From Paenibacillus sp. (GTDB lineage Bacteria; Bacteroidota; Bacteroidia; Bacteroidales; Muribaculaceae): a stretch of 64,000 nt of DNA. How positions within the stretch are numbered: position 1 is the stretch's first letter; the number at the start of each line of letters is the position of its first letter. Shown here piece after piece: positions 54,605 to 63,529 of the stretch. The stretch covers positions 115,886-179,885 of the forward strand of contig JAMPHR010000002.1 of assembly GCA_023663345.1 (NCBI GenBank). The letters run 5' to 3'. Below the pieces are notes generated by a model. The model was not told the origin of the DNA. It saw only the letters and a list, made by a program, of their open reading frames with translations, and ran no database searches. A program made the translations under genes and the position numbers.

Positions 54605-56212
54605 TTAGGGGTGTTCGCGATAGGTTACGTCGACTACTTCCTCTCCGAAACCTGAGAATTCTTCGTGAAGAGAGGCTTTACCTTGTTCGGAGATATAATA
54701 GAAGCGAACCTTACCACCATTTTCCTGTCCGTTTCCAGAGCATACGATCAGTTCGTACTGACGGTCCTCAATCTCCTTAAGTGAAGGAACATTTGCAGCG
54801 TTGTTCTGGAATAGGTTGAATTTAGTGCAGGTGACGTTTTCTGTGGCATCGAGGGTGATCTCATCGGTAACAGCCTGGGTCATCAGATTGTAGCAGTATA
54901 CCTTGTTGCCATAGCTGTAGAACATGAGGGGGAATTGAGAATGGAAGGCGTAATGAGTGGCTTCATTGAAATTGGGAGCTGTGATACCGGTGTACAGAGC
55001 TTCCTGAGTAGGATTGCCCCAACCTGACATATTGATTGCATAGACATGGCGAAGGCGGTTGGCATCCTGAAGAACGTTATAAACTACGTTACTAGAAAAC
55101 TTGGTGCCTTCCATGTGTATGAGATCCATGCCGGTCTGGAATGAGAATTTCTTGTTCTCGGCGGGATCAACACATGCTGTGAGGGCTTCGGAGTTGTATA
55201 CATACCAATACATGAAACGTTTGTTGGTCTCATCGTAAAGAAGCGCAGTGTATCCCGAGGGGCGTCCCATGCCGGCGCCGATGAACGGTGCGACCTTATA
55301 AGTGGCAGGATTGCCGACCATGTCGGTGTTGCGCAGATATTCGAAGCTCGCACCTGCACCTGACTGGTTGATCATATAGAAGTCACCGTTGTCGGTAACA
55401 AGAGCTTTTCCACCAGCACTCGTCGTATAGACATATACATTAGCCATGGCTACCGGTTCGCCAGGGACTTTAGCCGGATCACCGTAGATAAATTCAAGAG
55501 TCTTGATATTGTAGGATGGCTGGGTGAGAAGTGTGGTGTTGTGCAAACGGTAAGATCCCGAATGGCTCAAGAGATATACAGCCTCACGTTTTCCAAACTG
55601 ATCGGATGTCGAGAAGATACTGGGATAAAAATGGAGCCCAACGCCATCGGTAATATTGGGGGCGTCCGCGCCAAGGAGGTTATAGGCGCATCGAGGTTTG
55701 CCCTCAGAATCGTTGAAGATAATGTCGAGGCGACATTTCTTATCGGCACCGTTATTGCTGAGAACCATCCAACCGGCATAAGTGGTAGACCCTACGCTAA
55801 CTTTGCCCTCGGCATTATAGGTGACGCCAGTTTTTTTGTTAGTAACGGAGTACCATAGAGTGTAATCGGCAGCGGGTAGATCAGCGAAATATTTTACCGA
55901 AAGTTTCTTGTCTTCGTTGATGTCAAGCCAATGAACAGTCTCGTTGTTCTCATTTCTATGAGAGTAGTTGATTTTTGCACCGAATTCATAGTCAGGGTTA
56001 GCATCGGTGATCTCTCCATCGAAACGTGAAACTACAGTGGGAGTAAATTCTATATATTCAGATTTGGAGAGCGCGGCGATTTTTTCGGGAAGTGTGATGG
56101 TCACTTCATCAAGTTCACCATAGGTGTAGTTGCCCTTGTCCTCATAACAAGATGTCAGGAACATTGGAGCCACCGCAATGGAAACAATGAGTTTATATAA
56201 TCGGGTATTCAT
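54605..56212 (-). CDS. PKD-like lipoprotein of a Sus-type operon
   Basis: The 535-residue lipoprotein has a lipobox at LTSC (Cys22) and then CYEDKGNYTYGELDEVTI, a start typical of PKD-like (PKD_2 family) proteins. A first Ig/PKD-type module spans about 35-145, and the rest looks like a beta-propeller-like or repeated-strand domain (GWMVLSNNG, VYLLSHSGSYRL). In Bacteroidetes this gene regularly follows SusC, SusD and DUF4843 genes, as here. It probably lies on the cell surface and binds the imported substrate. Nature of the substrate unknown; no glycosidase is in the operon. Confidence 0.8.
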   Translation of the reverse strand: MNTRLYKLIVSIAVAPMFLTSCYEDKGNYTYGELDEVTITLPEKIAALSKSEYIEFTPTVVSRFDGEITDANPDYEFGAKINYSHRNENNETVHWLDINEDKKLSVKYFADLPAADYTLWYSVTNKKTGVTYNAEGKVSVGSTTYAGWMVLSNNGADKKCRLDIIFNDSEGKPRCAYNLLGADAPNITDGVGLHFYPSIFSTSDQFGKREAVYLLSHSGSYRLHNTTLLTQPSYNIKTLEFIYGDPAKVPGEPVAMANVYVYTTSAGGKALVTDNGDFYMINQSGAGASFEYLRNTDMVGNPATYKVAPFIGAGMGRPSGYTALLYDETNKRFMYWYVYNSEALTACVDPAENKKFSFQTGMDLIHMEGTKFSSNVVYNVLQDANRLRHVYAINMSGWGNPTQEALYTGITAPNFNEATHYAFHSQFPLMFYSYGNKVYCYNLMTQAVTDEITLDATENVTCTKFNLFQNNAANVPSLKEIEDRQYELIVCSGNGQENGGKVRFYYISEQGKASLHEEFSGFGEEVVDVTYREHP

Positions 56213-56217
56213 GTTGA

Positions 56218-57054
56218 TTATTCGTTGTCGGGATTGATGTATGCGGAGTAGTTGACCTCAAATTTGGAAGCGAGTTGCATGTAAGAACCGTCCTCGTCAA
56301 TAAGTGGAGTTCCGGCATCGGCCTTGGCCTGGAGGTATTTACGGAATTCCTTAGTCCAGAACTCGGAAGCTCCATAGTTGTAACGGGTGTTGAAGTCGTC
56401 AACTGTCCAGTTCATAGCTGACAGGAAAGCAAGGTATTTTGTGGCTGTGAACTTTCCAAGTTTGTCGGCGCCATACCAGCTCCAGTAAAGAGGCTCGGTG
56501 TATTCCTCACTGAAAACCACCTTATAAGTAGTGGCGGGTTTCATAGGCCCGTCGACATTCCATGCGGATGAATTCTTATATTCAGAGATGGGGGTCTCGA
56601 AATGCTCGTTGGGAACGATACGGACTTTTACCCAGATTTTGCCTTGGCGGAGTTTCGGGGTGCGTATCATCTGTATATAGAAGTTGTCAGTGGCTTCTCC
56701 TGCTTTAATCATGGAGGCATTTTGGCTTATGTTGAAGTCCTCACCCTCAATGGCAGTACTTTCTTCCTTGATGACTTCTACACGATAAGGGCGATCGTAG
56801 TCAACCACGTTGCCCATGGCACGGACAACAAAGCGTGTGTTGAATGTGGTTACATCCTCGGTGTAGGAGCTAAATGAGAATGCGGTGGAATCACGATAGC
56901 TGAGGGGGTTGCCGTATTGGTCAGTCGTGTACACATCCTGGATGAATATGCCGGCCTTAACACCTGAATAGGTCTCGATCTCCTCGGTTGAACATGATGT
57001 GATCGAGGCCACAATGCCGATGGCTGATAATATGATATATGCGAATCTTTTCAT
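56218..57054 (-). CDS. DUF4843 lipoprotein
   Basis: The 278-residue protein has a lipobox ITSC (Cys21) and the DUF4843 pattern: YSGVKAGIFIQDVYTT, FSFSSYTEDVTTFNTRFVVRAMGNVVDYDRPYRVEV, EGEDFNI and RQGKIWVKVRIVPNEHFE. This family accompanies SusCD pairs with PKD lipoproteins. It is predicted to be surface- or periplasm-exposed. Lies 12 nt after susD and 5 nt before the PKD gene. Confidence 0.85.
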   Translation of the reverse strand: MKRFAYIILSAIGIVASITSCSTEEIETYSGVKAGIFIQDVYTTDQYGNPLSYRDSTAFSFSSYTEDVTTFNTRFVVRAMGNVVDYDRPYRVEVIKEESTAIEGEDFNISQNASMIKAGEATDNFYIQMIRTPKLRQGKIWVKVRIVPNEHFETPISEYKNSSAWNVDGPMKPATTYKVVFSEEYTEPLYWSWYGADKLGKFTATKYLAFLSAMNWTVDDFNTRYNYGASEFWTKEFRKYLQAKADAGTPLIDEDGSYMQLASKFEVNYSAYINPDNE

Positions 57055-57066
57055 GATTTACTGAAA

Positions 57067-58575
57067 TTAATAGGTTTCACCTGATGGGATGGGGACATTG
57101 TAGCGATTGGCTTTTGATGGACTGTCAGTGCCCATCTCTGCTGACGCATTGAGGTGAGATTTGTTGGGGTTGTAGTAGATGCCTACATTGCAGTTGTAGC
57201 GTTTGAGCTGGAAGAAGTTCTGTCCTTCGCCACGAAGTTCGCGAGCATACTCAAGCTCGATTTCTTTCTGCAAATTAGCGGTAGTGGTATTGTCAGCCAA
57301 TGCCGGGACACCACGCGCTTCAAGAACCTTGTTGAGATAAGAAATGGATGTGGGAGTGTCATTAAGATTGAGAGCACTTTCAGACGCGATGTAGTAGGCT
57401 TCGGAAATGCGGAGAAGTCCGTAGAAAGTAGCCCAAAAATCGGGATTATTGCTATTGGTGGTAAAGCTCTTGTACTTGACAAATTCAAATCCTCCAGTCA
57501 ATGAAGAATTGGCTACCCATTGAGATTGGTAACGGTAGTCGGCGGTACGGGCTGAGAACAGCACGTCACTAACATATCCTTTCACAGGCTGAAGCAGGGT
57601 GGACTGCTGAAGGGCGGAACTGAAATAGTTCTGGTAAATATCGGACATTGAGTTGTTGTAGAATCCGAACAGACACTCGGTAGAGAAGATGCGGTCGGGA
57701 TTAGTGCTGTTGCCCAAAAGACGGTTGGAAACTACCCAGGGGAATGTTTCAGCCACCTTGGGAGAATCGGTAATCTTTTTTGCTTCAGCAAGAGCTGAGG
57801 TGTAGTCGGCCAACCACATATATGCGCGGGCTTTAAGGAGGATTACCGCGTAGTAGTTGAGGCGGAGCTGGCGGTAGCGGGACCAGTTGTCGGCTGTGGT
57901 CTCGCCACTTGAATTAAGCACGCCATCGGTGAGAATGGGATCGTATTTGGCGAGAATTTCTTCAGCACGGGAAAGGTCGCGGAGAACATAGTCCTTGATG
58001 AGAACATCGGCGGGAAGACGGTCGCGCTTCACTACATCGGACGACTCGGCATATGGAACAGCGAGGCCTGAAATGTTTGTGGCCGGAATTGGTCCGAAGA
58101 TGCGAGTGAGATCTAAGTGGAGATAAGCGCGAAGGGCGAGCATCTCGGCTTCGATTATGCTGGCATCGGATTCGGATAGTACACCTGGGAATTCATCGAT
58201 CGCTTCGATAACGAGGTTGGCATTGAGGATGGTCTTATAGGCTGTGCTCCATATATTGGTGAGAATAGATGAAGCGTAGTTGCCGGTATAAGTGGCATTA
58301 CGGCACTCGTACATAGCGCCTGCACTATTGGATATGTTGTAGCTGAGACCCATAGCCTCAATGGGGCCATAGGAGAGGTTGTATCCATACAGAGCATTGC
58401 TTGTGAGGGTATTGTATATGCCATTGACTGTGGTGTGAAAGCCGGTCTCGGTAGAAAATATCTGCTCATAGGACTGCTTGTCCTTCGGTGTATAATCCAA
58501 CCAGTCGGAGCATCCGGTCATTGCAGAGCCAATGGCAAGAGATGCGGCAATGGTGAGAGATTTATATAATTTCAT
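57067..58575 (-). CDS. SusD/RagB-family surface lipoprotein
   Basis: The 502-residue protein has a lipobox MTGC (Cys22), the N-terminal SusD-like motif DYTPKDKQSYEQIFSTETGFHTTVNGIYNTL, TPR-like helices and the C-terminal RagB/SusD domain with the ELRGEGQNFFQLKRYN signature near residue 445. SusD closes the SusC barrel like a lid and delivers ligand. It is 12 nt downstream of susC. Since its production is not in the phase-switched frame, it would be made even when SusC is out of frame, apart from polar effects. Confidence 0.92.
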   Translation of the reverse strand: MKLYKSLTIAASLAIGSAMTGCSDWLDYTPKDKQSYEQIFSTETGFHTTVNGIYNTLTSNALYGYNLSYGPIEAMGLSYNISNSAGAMYECRNATYTGNYASSILTNIWSTAYKTILNANLVIEAIDEFPGVLSESDASIIEAEMLALRAYLHLDLTRIFGPIPATNISGLAVPYAESSDVVKRDRLPADVLIKDYVLRDLSRAEEILAKYDPILTDGVLNSSGETTADNWSRYRQLRLNYYAVILLKARAYMWLADYTSALAEAKKITDSPKVAETFPWVVSNRLLGNSTNPDRIFSTECLFGFYNNSMSDIYQNYFSSALQQSTLLQPVKGYVSDVLFSARTADYRYQSQWVANSSLTGGFEFVKYKSFTTNSNNPDFWATFYGLLRISEAYYIASESALNLNDTPTSISYLNKVLEARGVPALADNTTTANLQKEIELEYARELRGEGQNFFQLKRYNCNVGIYYNPNKSHLNASAEMGTDSPSKANRYNVPIPSGETY

Positions 58576-58587
58576 GAGATTGTCGTT

Positions 58588-61500
58588 TTAGAGTGAGAAT
58601 GAAAGGGCGAATGTGTAGCTTCGGGCGAATGGATAGGCTGTACCGCGCTCGAGTTTGATGGATGTGAGCCAGAACACATCGTTAGCGTAGAAGTTGAGGC
58701 GCAGAGATTCAAGTCCAATCTTGTGAGCTACCTGATAGAAGTCATATCCGAGCTGAAGAGACTGGAGAGTCAGTGAATTGTTACGCTGAACGAAGCGGGA
58801 GGACATAGGAGAGTTGGAGGTGCTTGCGATGTTCTTGAACTGGGCGATATCACCGGGTTTCTGCCAGCGATCATAGAGGGCGCGACGGTCCTGGTTGTAG
58901 TTGAGCTGGGAACCGGAGATGTTTTCTACCTTGTTGAAGAGGTCGGTGTTATAGGCTTTGCCGCCCCATTTGTAATTGAAGTTCATGCCAAGCGTGAACC
59001 CTTTGTAAGTGAGATTGGTACCGAATGAACCTTCGATCTTTGAGCGGGTCTTACCAACTATTACTTCATCATCGGGATTGTAGTCGTAGGTGTATGAGCC
59101 GTCCTTCTTGATGAATAGCTCGCGGCCGTTGGCGGGGTCGATACCGGCTGAACGGACTGCCCAGATGGCATCGGGATCGGCCCCGTCGTAGTAGCGCTTG
59201 GTGTCGGTGGTCTTGGCTGTCTCGTTAAGATCGTCGAGTGCTCCGCTGAGGTTTAGGAGTTTTATGTTTTCGTGACGGAGTGTGCCACGGACGCTCCAAG
59301 TGAAACGGTCGGCCATATTGCGAAGAATATAATAGCTTGCTGAAGCGAGGACACCTTTAGATTTTTGTTTTCCGAGGTTGGTGTTCCAAAGTCCGGTCAG
59401 ACCTGTTGATAGGGGTACAGAAATGCTTATGAGAAGCGGGTCGGTAGTCTTGTCATAGTAGTCAACTTCAACTGACCAACGGTCGGTAGAGAAATCGATA
59501 CCAACGTTGTAGTCGCGTGTGGTCTGCCAACGGAGGTTGCGGTTTCCGAGAGTCTGTAATATTGTGGAGTTGCCGAAGTAGTTGAAGCTATCGAACATGA
59601 ACCTATAGGTGATGAGCGACATGGCTGATGAGAAGTCCTGGTTACCGGGGTTACCATAAGATCCACGAATCTTAAGCATGGATACATTGGGGAATGCTTC
59701 GCGGAAGAAGCGCTCGTTCATAATGTTCCAGCCGATACCTACCGACCATGTGTCGATGAATTTCTTATTTGAGCCGAATACTGATGAGCCGCTGATGTTG
59801 TAGTTGAGGTCAAGGAGGTAACGGTTGTCAAAAGCGTAGTTGAGGGTGCCGAGAAGGCTTGCGGAACGGTAGACTGTCTCGTAATAAGTGGGAGTACCGC
59901 CTTCGGGGTATCCATTGGCAAATGAGGGATAGGTGTAGTCGCCTTCGGGGAAGCCTACGACTGAATATCCTTGGGCAAGGGACTTGTTTTGCGAGAGGCT
60001 TGCATTTACGGCAAGATTGATGCGGTTTTTGCCAAATACATCGCCGTAGATAGCGGTAAGGGCTCCATTGTAAGATGTGGATTTGGTGTTGGATGAAACG
60101 AATGATCCCTTGCGGGTAGCATCGGTATTGGTGTATCGGGTATCAAGGGGAGAGATGAAGTTCTCGCTATTGTCGGTGGAGTGGGTTAATCCGAACTTGG
60201 CACGCAGACGGATCTGGTGGATGGGATTGTACTCAGCGATAAAGTAGTTGGTGAGAAGGAGGGTATTGGCATTATTGCGCGAGTTCAGAGATGCATTGTA
60301 CAGGGGGTTTGCTGCCTGTGCAAAATCGTTGTTCTCGAGCCAGGGAGTGATTTTGCCATTCTCGTCGGTTTTCTTGTAATAGGGGTTGGCGCTGGCGTAC
60401 TGGCTGAAGTCGACGATGGGATTCTTGGTATCAGTGTAGAGAACGGAGAGTTGATCGGAGAACAGAAGTTTGCCAAGACGGTAGGTGAGATCTAGGTTGC
60501 CGCCGTAGCTGTCGCGGGAACTGCCTTTCATCACGCCTTCCTGACCGCTATAGTTGCCACCAAGTCCGAACATAAAGCCTCCGGAACCACCATCGATATA
60601 GACGTTGTGTTTCTGGGTGTAGCCTGTGCGGAGAGGTGCGCTAAGCCAATAGGTGTCAACGCCACTGGCGATGTCGGCTGCACGCTGGTTGTAAATGTTA
60701 GAATAAAGGATCTCTTTTTCAGGTGTCCAGGTGCCTGAGTTGAGCGTATAGCGACCTGCGAGACGCTCGAATTCGAGCTTCTCGGCCGAGTTCATGAGGT
60801 TGTAAGAGCTGAGATCGGGGGTGGAGAGTGCGATAGACCCGTTGTAAGAGAGGCGGAGCTTGCCAGCCTTTGGTTTAACGGTCTCGACAACTACAACGCC
60901 GTTGGCGGCTTTGGAGCCGTAGATGGCTGTGGAGGCGGCGTCCTTAAGGATGGTCATAGACTCGATGCGGTTGATGTCGAGGTTGTAGACAGCCTCGAGG
61001 GTGGATTCGAATCCGTCGACGATGAAAAGGGGCTGATTGGGGTCATTGACTGCTTCATCACGCTGGCCTATGACTGATGATTTACCGCGGATGTTGATGT
61101 CGGGGAGTGTATTTGGGTCAGATCCGGCCAGGTCGTTGGTGAGGACATTGAAGGCGGGGTCAAGCGCTGCAAGAGATGTGATGGGGTTTTGTACGCCGAT
61201 CATGCGGAGTTCGTCGCCTGAGAATGTAGATGCCGATCCAGTGAAGGATGTTTTGTCTTTGGTGACGATACCGGTGACTACGACGTCCTTGAGGGTGTTG
61301 GCGTCGTCCTCGAGTGTTATGATGAGGGGTTTACCGGGTTCGGCTTTGATTTCTTTGGGCTTTTTGCCGATGTAGGAGATTTCGAGTTTTGAGGCTCCGT
61401 TAGGTTTGATTGAGAAGGCTCCGTTTACGTCGGTGGCTGTGGCTGATTTGCCAAGGCGTACTGTGGCTCCGATGAGTGGCTCGCCTTCGGTGTCGAAGAT

Positions 61501-61645
61501 GTGGCCGGAGATTACATTGGAGTTCGATCCAGGTTGAGTGCTGCTAACTACCCCCCCCCTTAGATGCTTGAGCGACAGCGCTTTGGGCGAATGGCAAGAG
61601 GGCCAGCATAAATAGCACGAAGTAGCCTATGCTTTTTCTTTTCAT
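58588..61645 (-). CDS. SusC-family TonB-dependent transporter, frame broken by a G9 tract
   Basis: The ATG at 61645 starts a signal peptide (MKRKSIGYFVLFMLALLPFA...AVAQA). Nine G follow at 61559-61551, after which the frame ends at TAG: product 33 residues. Removing one G (or adding two) joins it to a frame open to 58588. The sum is 3058 nt, that is 1019 codons plus one base. The rest is normal SusC: carboxypeptidase-regulatory domain (VISGHIFDTEGEPLIGATVRLG), the LKDVVVTGIVTKDK region, plug (LFIVDGFES, ILKDAASTAIYGSKAANGVVVV) and barrel ending FALSFSL. No other damage is visible, so the gene looks either phase-variable (present state OFF) or misassembled. Confidence 0.85.
61551..61559 (-). 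repeat. G9 homopolymer in susC
   Basis: Nine consecutive C on the plus strand (G on the coding strand), just after codon 28. G8 or G11 gives the full frame; G9 and G10 stop at once. Apart from the intergenic G10 listed below, the longest G or C runs I noticed elsewhere in the window are six to seven. Confidence 0.85.
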
Positions 61646-61799: not shown

Positions 61800-61830
61800 C
61801 AAAAGTATATTAAGTGTTTTAATTATGCAA
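61800..61830 (-). promoter_or_regulatory. Promoter of the susC operon
   Basis: On the minus strand TTG (61830-61828) and TACTTTTG (61807-61800), 20-nt spacer. The start would be near 61793, giving a leader of about 150 nt. Confidence 0.65.
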
Positions 61831-61914: not shown

Positions 61915-61932
61915 TTTTTTTTGGGGGGGGGG
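61915..61932 (+). repeat. T8G10 homopolymer tract
   Basis: Eight T then ten G, 85 bp upstream of the susC -33 element and immediately before TAGACCAGAGGGCCAGAGG, a variant of the TAGACCATAGGGCC repeat. Confidence 0.85.
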
Positions 61933-61976
61933 TAGACCAGAGGGCCAGAGGTTTTTTAAGGAGGGTAGTTGAGGAT

Positions 61977-62193
61977 GGGATTATAGGACGTCTTCGACGC
62001 CCAGGTGGGTATGGGTTTCGTTTTCCCCATGCCTCCCGGTCGGGCAAATCTGCCCTGACGTGCGATTTGCTCCGCCCGGTCGTGATGGGGCTATAATTAC
62101 ATCGCCCTTTCAGGACTTGATGGGTAGCCTGCGGGGGATTTGCGTGTCTGGTTGGTAGGGGTGGGTACATCACGCTGGCGGTTTAGAGAAGAG
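61977..62193 (+). repeat. REP-like 217-bp direct repeat, copy 1
   Basis: Begins GGGATTATAGGACGTCTTCG and ends GGTTTAGAGAAGAG. Contains inverted segments (CCGGTCGGGCAAAT..., CCGCCCGGTCGTGATGGGGC). On the minus strand CCTGAAAGGGCGATGTAATT followed by ATAGCCCC resembles REP elements linked to TnpA-REP transposases in Bacteroidetes (from memory). Confidence 0.75.
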
Positions 62194-62242
62194 GTCCGAA
62201 GGTTTTTTAAGGGCGGAGATTTGGTATGGTGGGGTGGTGGGG

Positions 62243-62282
62243 GGATTATTGTTTAGACCATAGGGCCAAAGGGCTTTTAAGG
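62243..62282 (+). repeat. TAGACCATAGGGCC repeat, copy at 62.2 kb
   Basis: GGATTATTGTTTAGACCATA followed by GGGCCAAAGGGCTTTTAAGG. Identical over 40 bp to 62661-62700 and nearly identical to the minus-strand copy at 44631-44669. The 30 bp before it (GGAGATTTGGTATGGTGGGG) is shared with the 62.6-kb copy too. Confidence 0.85.
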
Positions 62283-62301
62283 GGGGATTATAGGGGGCGC
62301 A

Positions 62302-62520
62302 GGGATTATAGGACGTCTTCGACGCCCAGGTGGGTATGGGTTTCGTTTTCCCCATGCCTCCCGGTCGGGCAAATTTGCCCTGCGGGCAATTTGCATCTCC
62401 GCCCGGTCGTGATGGGGCTATAATTACATCGCTCTTTCAGGGCTTGATGGGTAGCCTGCGGGGGATTTGCGTGCCTGGTTGGCAGGGGTGGTTGCATCAC
62501 GCTGGTGGTTTAGAGAAGAG
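62302..62520 (+). repeat. REP-like direct repeat, copy 2
   Basis: About 90 percent identical by eye to 61977-62193 over the whole length. In this copy GGGCAAATTTGCCC is a perfect 14-bp palindrome; copy 1 has one changed base there. Confidence 0.75.
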
Positions 62521-62660
62521 TTGTTGTGGCTCTTGCAGTGCCAGCTTGCGGTAAAATAACAGGGGAGACATTGATCAAGGGATCTACGCAATATACAATT
62601 GTTATATGATAGGGCTAGAGGTTTTTAAGGGGCGGAGATTTGGTATGGTGGGGTGGTGGG

Positions 62661-62700
62661 GGATTATTGTTTAGACCATAGGGCCAAAGGGCTTTTAAGG
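62661..62700 (+). repeat. TAGACCATAGGGCC repeat, copy at 62.7 kb
   Basis: Identical to 62243-62282 and preceded by the same GGAGATTTGGTATGGTGGGG segment, so the shared unit is about 80 bp. Confidence 0.85.
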
Positions 62701-62894
62701 GGGGATTTGATATGGTGGGGCGCCGAGGGTGGTTGCGTGGCGTAAGGCCCGGGGATGAGGGAGTTGGATTGGGAGAGTTGTGTGGGGAAGATGGATGGGG
62801 TAGTGGGCAGGGATGGATGGGGTGGACGGGGATGGGTGGAGTGGGGTGAATTTCTGGTGGGTTGGGTGGTGTGGAGAAAAAATTTCTGTGAATA

Positions 62895-63055: not shown

Positions 63056-63529
63056 ATGGCTTCTTCTTCAGAACGTCTCGATGATATTGATATAAAGATT
63101 CTCCGTCTGCTTCAGCAGAATGCGCGTCTGACGCTTAAGGAGATCGGTTCGCAGGTGAATCTTTCGTCCACTCCGGTGTATGAGCGGTTCAGGCGTCTTG
63201 AGCGTGAGGGTTATATCAAGAAGTATGTGGCTGTGCTTGATGAGGAGAAGCTGAATATGGGGCTTACGGTGTATTGCAGCGTGAAGCTTAAGCAGCAGAC
63301 TCTGGAGCAGAGCGAGATGTTTGCGAATGTGATCAGGGGTGTGAGGGAGGTCACGGAGTGCTATAATATCTCGGGGCAGAATGATTTTCTGCTGAAGATC
63401 CAGGCTGCGAATATGATGGCTTACCGGGAGTTTGTGTTGCATGTGCTTGGGAGCATGGAGCAGGTGTGGGCGTATGAGTCGACATTTGTGATGGATACCG
63501 TGAAGCATGATTATGGGCTGACGATATAG
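63056..63529 (+). CDS. Lrp/AsnC-family transcription regulator
   Basis: The 157-residue protein has the N-terminal winged helix (LDDIDIKILRLLQQNARLTLKEIGSQVNLSSTPVYERFRRLEREGYI, about 8-55) and the RAM ligand-binding/oligomerisation domain (about 70-150), with VREVTECYNISGQNDFLLKI. Length and layout are standard. Such regulators respond to amino acids and form octamers. No target is evident; it may regulate itself or genes elsewhere. It lies just right of the repeat-rich region. Confidence 0.92.
   Translation: MASSSERLDDIDIKILRLLQQNARLTLKEIGSQVNLSSTPVYERFRRLEREGYIKKYVAVLDEEKLNMGLTVYCSVKLKQQTLEQSEMFANVIRGVREVTECYNISGQNDFLLKIQAANMMAYREFVLHVLGSMEQVWAYESTFVMDTVKHDYGLTI

What the first reader, a model, noticed from the sequence alone, without database searches (positions are those of the whole stretch)
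58588..61645. SusC transporter with a G9 tract that puts it out of frame: candidate slipped-strand phase variation
Seen: the signal-peptide frame from 61645 hits TAG right after nine G; from the tract to 58588 a second frame is fully open, and the lengths differ by exactly one base. G8 or G11 would restore the whole SusC. Known: runs of 8-11 G in the 5' part of surface genes are phase switches in Campylobacter and Neisseria. In Bacteroidales, SusC switching is known mainly by DNA inversion. A homopolymer switch of a nutrient transporter, positioned just after the signal peptide, would be a different way to vary the cell surface. The alternative is a sequencing or assembly error.
Basis: partly seen in the sequence, partly recalled or inferred. 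Interest (0 to 1): 0.88.

Follow-up and report, generated by a model that had tools for sequence, protein, structure and literature searches.

The report
Poly-G switches on SusC transporter genes
A gut bacterium carries a run of nine Gs that puts a nutrient-transporter gene out of frame, and the same kind of run recurs at many of its transporter genes and in related species, which points to a built-in on/off switch driven by copying slips rather than a one-off error.

Summary
In detail: G9 at 61551-61559 (minus strand) separates a signal-peptide start (ATG 61645) from an intact SusC body ending at 58588; G8 or G11 joins them. It is no lone accident. All 14 runs of G>=9 in this genome are followed by TA and 12 of 14 lie at SusC 5' ends. 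Ten of 40 SusC genes have a G/C run >=8 in their 5' coding part: nine OFF, each by one base too many, one ON. A homolog in another species (83% identical) has the same run as G8 and is ON. The OFF body is under strong constraint, dN/dS 0.086. In relatives, runs also sit in methylase, acyltransferase and other genes and in promoters, often at set distances from the -7 box. Best reading: slipped-strand phase variation, used widely in this Bacteroidales family. No reads were available, so switching within a population is inferred. Unexplained: the TA beside long runs, in genes and promoters and on either strand.

The parts
61551..61559 (-). G9 run, the proposed length switch (OFF at 9, ON at 8 or 11)
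61549..61550 (-). TA directly 3' of the G run, shared by all 14 runs >=9 of the genome
61544..61546 (-). TAG stop reached in the OFF (G9) frame, codon 34
61562..61645 (-). start codon and signal-peptide-like N-terminus (MKRKSIGYFVLFMLALLPFAQSAVAQAS) of the SusC gene; named by eye, no signal-peptide program was run
58588..61548 (-). SusC/RagA body, fully open in the second frame (CarboxypepD_reg, Plug, TonB beta-barrel)
61800..61807 (-). -7 box TAnnTTTG (TACTTTTG) of the SusC promoter; TTG at 61828-61830, 20 bases upstream, fits a -33 element (Bacteroidetes consensus recalled)
57067..58575 (-). SusD partner lipoprotein
56218..57054 (-). DUF4843 protein, next gene downstream
54605..56212 (-). 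PKD_2 protein, next gene downstream
61923..61932 (+). second run, G10 followed by TAG, on the other strand, inside a 50-nt intergenic repeat; no -7 box 10-30 bases from it; role unclear

Best explanation
The G9 run is a contingency switch. During DNA replication the run gains or loses a G by slipped-strand mispairing. At G8 the signal peptide is in frame with the SusC body and the transporter is made; at G9 translation stops after 33 residues and no SusC is made. The genome holds many such runs, mostly at SusC genes: some inside the 5' coding part (frame switch), some upstream, where in this genome and its relatives many sit at one of two usual distances from a -7 box (promoter switch). A population would then contain cells with different sets of surface transporters. 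Shown: the sequence anatomy, the frame arithmetic, recurrence at many SusC genes, length and state differences between species, constraint on the OFF body. Inferred: that length changes occur within a population, that they are reversible, and that they alter protein.
For: Frames. Recurrence: 10 of 40 SusC genes have a 5' coding run >=8, from 21-28 to 241 nt after the start, as G or as C in the coding strand, so several origins (inference); 9 OFF, 1 ON. Four more have a run >=8 within 450 nt upstream. The other two runs >=9 lie in the 5' part of an acyltransferase-like gene (C10, OFF) and at the 3' end of a glycosyltransferase-like gene (both names are my reading, the family search of L062 failed). 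Control: 30 of 30 SusC genes without a 5' coding run have an in-frame ATG; by the same test 5 of the 9 OFF genes have none. Homolog at 83% identity: same site, G8, ON. Two homologs at 72% have no coding run but a G8 run in a promoter. dN/dS 0.086 over 985 codons. Homologous DNA methylase genes of two species (57% identical): G9 ON, G10 OFF. Promoters: of 131 distinct runs >=7 in held loci, 16 have a -7 box at exactly 19 bases; 16 of 21 with spacing 18-20 and 9 of 9 with spacing 11-14 have tandem TTAA repeats upstream, against 17 of the other 101.
Against: No reads or isolates of this species were available, so no length mixture was seen. All nine OFF SusC genes err in the same direction (one base too many); unbiased slippage would also give losses. 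The genome is a draft (86.6% complete, 22 contigs). One apparent G9/G10 pair in a relative looks like assembly noise. Four of the nine OFF genes keep an in-frame ATG near the run, which might allow a product without a whole signal peptide. MutS1 is present, so slippage may be slow. G8 words are not in excess by composition in the window. 13 of 23 homologs read have no G/C run >=7 in the 500 nt upstream.
Confidence: 0.87

Rival explanations
1. Sequencing or assembly error: the true run is G8 here and perhaps at the other SusC genes, and the genes are simply intact. (Not exclusive of the best reading for the other runs.)
For: All nine OFF SusC runs are exactly one base too long; a draft genome; homopolymers are hard to call; a relative's contig shows single-base indels.
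Against: Even then the clustering of runs at SusC starts (12 of 14), their placement in rare GGG codons, the TA context and the promoter layout need explaining. 11 runs of the genome are called as 8, one of them ON (L012) and one itself OFF (L014, C8), so a general overcall from 8 to 9 does not fit. A methylase differs in state between two species.
Confidence: 0.12
2. The gene is a decaying pseudogene fixed OFF.
For: The OFF frame cannot give a transporter.
Against: The body has no stop in 986 codons and dN/dS is 0.086 (the dN/dS is for the whole divergence and would not show a very recent loss). Nine SusC genes with open bodies of 718-1026 codons that are out of frame only at the run would be an odd decay.
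Confidence: 0.02
3. The G9 gene is expressed by programmed slippage of RNA polymerase or the ribosome, so G9 is not truly OFF.
For: Nine of ten runs sit in the same state, one base too long, as a recoding signal would.
Against: The run falls in different codon phases and is a C run in L014, L018 and L029, which speaks against one ribosomal signal; in-frame G8 copies exist; other runs lie in promoters. Polymerase slippage is not excluded.
Confidence: 0.07
4. DNA inversion switch: 61548-61559 and 61924-61935 are inverted repeats flanking a 364-bp segment with the promoter and signal peptide.
For: A perfect 12-bp inverted pair; a SusC/SusD invertase is known in Bacteroides fragilis (Nakayama-Imaohji 2009, seen only as a reference in PMC11868660).
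Against: The arms are only G run plus TAG; the nearest of 4 tyrosine recombinases (PF00589) is about 47 kb away; the homolog L139 has no second run; no other pair among the 25 runs lies inverted within 5 kb. Serine recombinases were not searched.
Confidence: 0.02

Closest known systems
Poly-G/poly-C contingency loci of Campylobacter and Neisseria, incl. the TonB-dependent haemoglobin receptors HmbR/HpuAB (PMC3786947, PMC4965091, PMC3352162: search listings and abstract starts only)
   Same: G or C run of seven or more inside a surface gene, frame ON/OFF by one-base change; TonB-dependent receptors as targets in Neisseria
   Different: Here in Bacteroidales; the target family is SusC; most SusC runs here are 9 with ON at 8; long runs are followed by TA (not compared with Campylobacter or Neisseria here); promoters have another layout
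Bifidobacterium breve pilus G-tract replication slippage (PMC9187656, abstract and outline read)
   Same: Gut commensal, intragenic G tract, production depends on slippage, measured by maximum-depth sequencing
   Different: Gram-positive, two pilus clusters; here 14 of 40 SusC genes carry runs, plus others
SusC/SusD inversion phase variation in Bacteroides fragilis (Nakayama-Imaohji 2009; paper not held; seen in the reference list of PMC11868660)
   Same: Same target family and same kind of outcome
   Different: Site-specific DNA inversion; here homopolymer length
Spacer-length phase-variable promoter of nadA with repressor NadR in meningococcus (PMC2791445, search listing and abstract start)
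   Same: Repeat length between regulatory elements sets promoter activity
   Different: Here a G run between tandem TTAA repeats and a TAnnTTTG box; activity untested

Membership tests
Homopolymer (SSR) phase-variable locus | Homopolymer >=7 in 5' coding part or promoter | tested here: met
   G9 at 61551-61559, codons 29-32
Homopolymer (SSR) phase-variable locus | One run length gives a full intact product, neighbouring lengths do not | tested here: met
Homopolymer (SSR) phase-variable locus | Run length differs between relatives at the same site | tested here: met
   G9 here, G8 in L139/L202; between species, not strains
Homopolymer (SSR) phase-variable locus | Length mixture within a clonal population, high-rate and reversible | not testable with these tools
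   no reads or isolates
Homopolymer (SSR) phase-variable locus | Expression changes with length | not testable with these tools
   needs a protein assay
SusC/RagA TonB-linked transporter | CarboxypepD_reg + Plug + TonB barrel and adjacent SusD | tested here: met
   solved SusC and RagA homologs match
Invertible SusC switch | Inverted repeats with a nearby site-specific recombinase | tested here: not met
   only a 12-bp G-run pair; nearest PF00589 about 47 kb away; serine recombinases not tested

The most novel reading that the evidence does not exclude
The switch element is not a bare G run but a composite, G(8-12)-TA, read by a dedicated factor (for example a protein that binds or nicks at the run end and promotes or blocks repair of slips). 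It would be used across this Bacteroidales family as a common switch module for SusC transporters, surface-sugar enzymes, methylases and small RNAs, in genes and promoters and on either strand.
Probability: 0.2. Interest if true: 0.92.

Novelty: new variant of a known kind. Interest (0 to 1): 0.8.

Why it matters
SusC transporters decide which glycans and peptides a gut Bacteroidales cell can take up and are exposed on its surface (recalled). In Bacteroidales their switching is known mainly by DNA inversion. A homopolymer system touching 14 of 40 SusC genes in one genome would mean that metagenome-assembled genomes of this family record snapshots of a shifting surface, that many 'frameshifted' SusC genes are live, and that tools built for inversions miss it. 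It can be tested in existing reads.

Tried and rejected
Rejected as evidence: L110 and L111 (G001:C2) show the same flanks with G9 and G10, but the two stretches align over 2,796 columns with 0 mismatches and 7 single-base gaps, some in A runs or plain bases; this looks like an assembly overlap with indel noise.

Rejected: inversion by the paired runs. Rejected: that TA is kept because it makes stop codons, since C runs in the coding strand and promoter runs have it too. TA is not universal outside this genome: the G10 copy in L079 is followed by AT and a G11 in L118 by AA. Rfam matches to L116 are far below the gathering scores. The match to BT_2264 (5fq6) is weaker than to other SusC structures and the PKD_2 protein has no solved relative at E<=1, so the substrate is left open. 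No near match in phage records.

One search treated minus-strand genes wrongly (these loci are not turned); redone. The 40 SusC genes are those of 63 matches that reach the N-terminal part of one query; remoter SusC genes may be missing. The nearest named record is a MAG called Bacteroides sp. isolate Mgla_MAG_5-bin_19, whose stretch contains L202 of G008 letter for letter. Prior art was sought (open-access library; 194, 25, 960, 22, 29, 14 and 6 papers held the terms, at most 20 listed each); no listed title or abstract start describes homopolymer switching of SusC or in Bacteroidales. That is no proof of absence.

Full report
The observation. The minus strand carries G9 at 61551-61559. From ATG 61645 the frame gives a signal-peptide-like start and stops at TAG 61546-61544. 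A second frame is open to 58588 and encodes a 986-residue SusC/RagA body, followed by SusD, DUF4843 and PKD_2 genes. G8 or G11 joins start and body. A -7 box lies at 61807-61800, so the start is placed sensibly.

Is it more than chance? In the window G8 words are at the number expected from composition (5 against 4.42). In the whole genome there are 25 distinct runs of G>=8 (45 words), of which 15 lie at SusC 5' ends; for runs >=9 it is 12 of 14. With 40 SusC genes and an interval of 550 bp, 0.8% of the genome, the binomial chance is about 1e-23 for runs >=9. The interval was chosen after looking, but the margin is large.

State of the SusC genes. Of 40 SusC genes with a matched N-terminal part, 10 have a G or C run >=8 in the 5' coding part. 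Eight are at 9 and need 8, one (L014) is C8 and needs 7, and one (L012) is G8 and ON. The run begins between 21-28 and 241 nt after the start: before, inside or after the signal peptide, or in the CarboxypepD_reg domain (L018). L011, L016 and L012 are alike around the run; the rest are not. Control: all 30 SusC genes without a 5' coding run have an in-frame ATG; of the nine OFF genes, five have none and four (L011, L016, L021, L029) keep one near the run that would leave the protein without a whole signal peptide (and inference). Four of the 30 have a run >=8 upstream (L003, L005, L026, L071).

Relatives. The homolog in L139 (83% identity; it contains L202 of G008, same genus, letter for letter) has G8 and is ON, with GGGGGGGGTAGTTA kept while the signal peptide around it changed. 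Synonymous change is near saturation (dS 1.26) and dN/dS is 0.086 over 985 codons. GGG makes up 9 of 228 Gly codons in six window genes, so the run seems kept as DNA rather than as protein. Besides the window's own, read 23 homologs: four have a coding run >=7 (L202 G8 ON; L221 G7 OFF; L224 G9 OFF; L219 G7 ON, not followed by TA), six have a G7-G9 run upstream (L203, L204, L212, L213, L222, L225), and 13 have none.

Other genes. Families found next to or over the runs in the genus include acyltransferases (L084, L085, L117, L123), a Branch glycosyltransferase (L082), a sulfatase (L095), an N6/N4 DNA methylase (L096), SusC (L102), DUF3575 (L083), an AraC-type regulator (L080), an M16 peptidase, DUF4114 proteins, a transposase and others; of 30 proteins scanned nine had no family at E<=0.001 (for intergenic runs a neighbour was taken, so some links may be accidental). 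The methylase is ON at G9 in G020 and its homolog OFF at G10 in G021 (57% identity). In 23 rows of relatives with a TA run, an upstream ATG and a body of at least 180 aa, 3 were ON by the most upstream ATG and 20 OFF; in three of the 20 the next ATG is in frame. These starts are guesses.

Promoter runs. Of 131 distinct runs >=7 in held loci, 40 have TAnnTTTG 10 to 30 bases downstream, 16 of them at exactly 19. Of 21 with spacing 18-20, 16 have tandem TTAA repeats about one helical turn apart upstream of the run; of 9 with spacing 11-14, all 9; of the other 101, 17; random windows of the same loci 0.45%, though AT-rich intergenic DNA will have more. The loci were gathered partly by searching G9TA, so these counts describe the set and not the genomes. 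Three of this genome's runs >=8 are of this kind: L003 (SusC), L055 and L063. The upstream runs of L005, L026 and L071 have no such -7 box by this strict pattern.

The TA. In the held stretches of this genome, chosen for SusC genes and runs, runs of 3 to 7 G are followed by TA in 387 of 6,446 (0-8% by length), runs of 8 in 4 of 11, runs >=9 in 13 of 13 distinct contexts; genome-wide 14 of 14 for >=9. In the 27 genomes of the genus it is 73 of 155 (59 of 141 without this genome), in one genome from each of 29 other genera of the family 124 of 222, and in 58 genomes of other families of the order 75 of 281. So outside this genome about half of long runs in the family lack TA. The reversed pattern ATG9 gives 23 in the genus, 45 in the 29, and in 195 genomes of other families 110 against 189. 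The bias is strongest here, strong in the family and weaker in the order. It holds for runs in genes, on either coding strand, and in promoters, so neither codon use nor promoter layout alone explains it. I have no tested explanation.

Mechanism. Slipped-strand mispairing at the run is the simplest cause and is reported for G tracts in other bacteria, including a gut commensal (PMC9187656, abstract). MutS1 is present. The uniform direction of the nine OFF SusC genes is unexplained; G9 may be the favoured resting length, or part of it may be a calling bias.

Prior art. Seven searches (up to 20 titles seen in each) list no paper on homopolymer phase variation in Bacteroidales. In the 2025 review PMC11868660 the passages shown (12 of 17) mention Bacteroides with inversion or without a mechanism, not with homopolymers. 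PMC2831843 on homopolymeric tracts holds no word beginning with Bacteroid. The library is open-access only.

Noticed in passing
L063 (G000:C16:207396-207403, minus), L079, L080, L116, L127, L137: Short transcripts without a long ORF (core GTCAACTAAAAAGTTAGGTTAAA or close, ending in a hairpin with TGTGAAGTT or close in its loop and a T run) sit behind G-run promoters; in L079 three copies 308 bp apart carry G10, G9 and G7. No Rfam family reached its gathering score for them (L080 and L127 were not). Candidate phase-variable small RNAs.
   Followed up: partly
L096 and L097: Homologous DNA methylases (57% identical), G9 ON in one species and G10 OFF in the other: candidate phasevarion in Bacteroidales.
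   Followed up: partly
L121, L100, L101: Regions with two or three G8/G9-TA runs within about 1.5 kb; reading frames seem to change near the runs and no Pfam family is clear.
   Followed up: no
window 61919-62731: G-rich intergenic repeats of 50 to 124 nt in several copies between the SusC gene and the gene at 63056; the G10 run at 61923 is part of one copy.
   Followed up: partly
L079 1140-1900: The G9 and G7 copies share 74 of 80 flanking bases, a possible record of run-length change within one genome if the assembly is right; the G10 copy is followed by AT, not TA.
   Followed up: partly
G000:C11:190294-201351 (L011, L016): Two neighbouring SusC genes share almost identical sequence around the run, which suggests recent duplication or gene conversion.
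   Followed up: no
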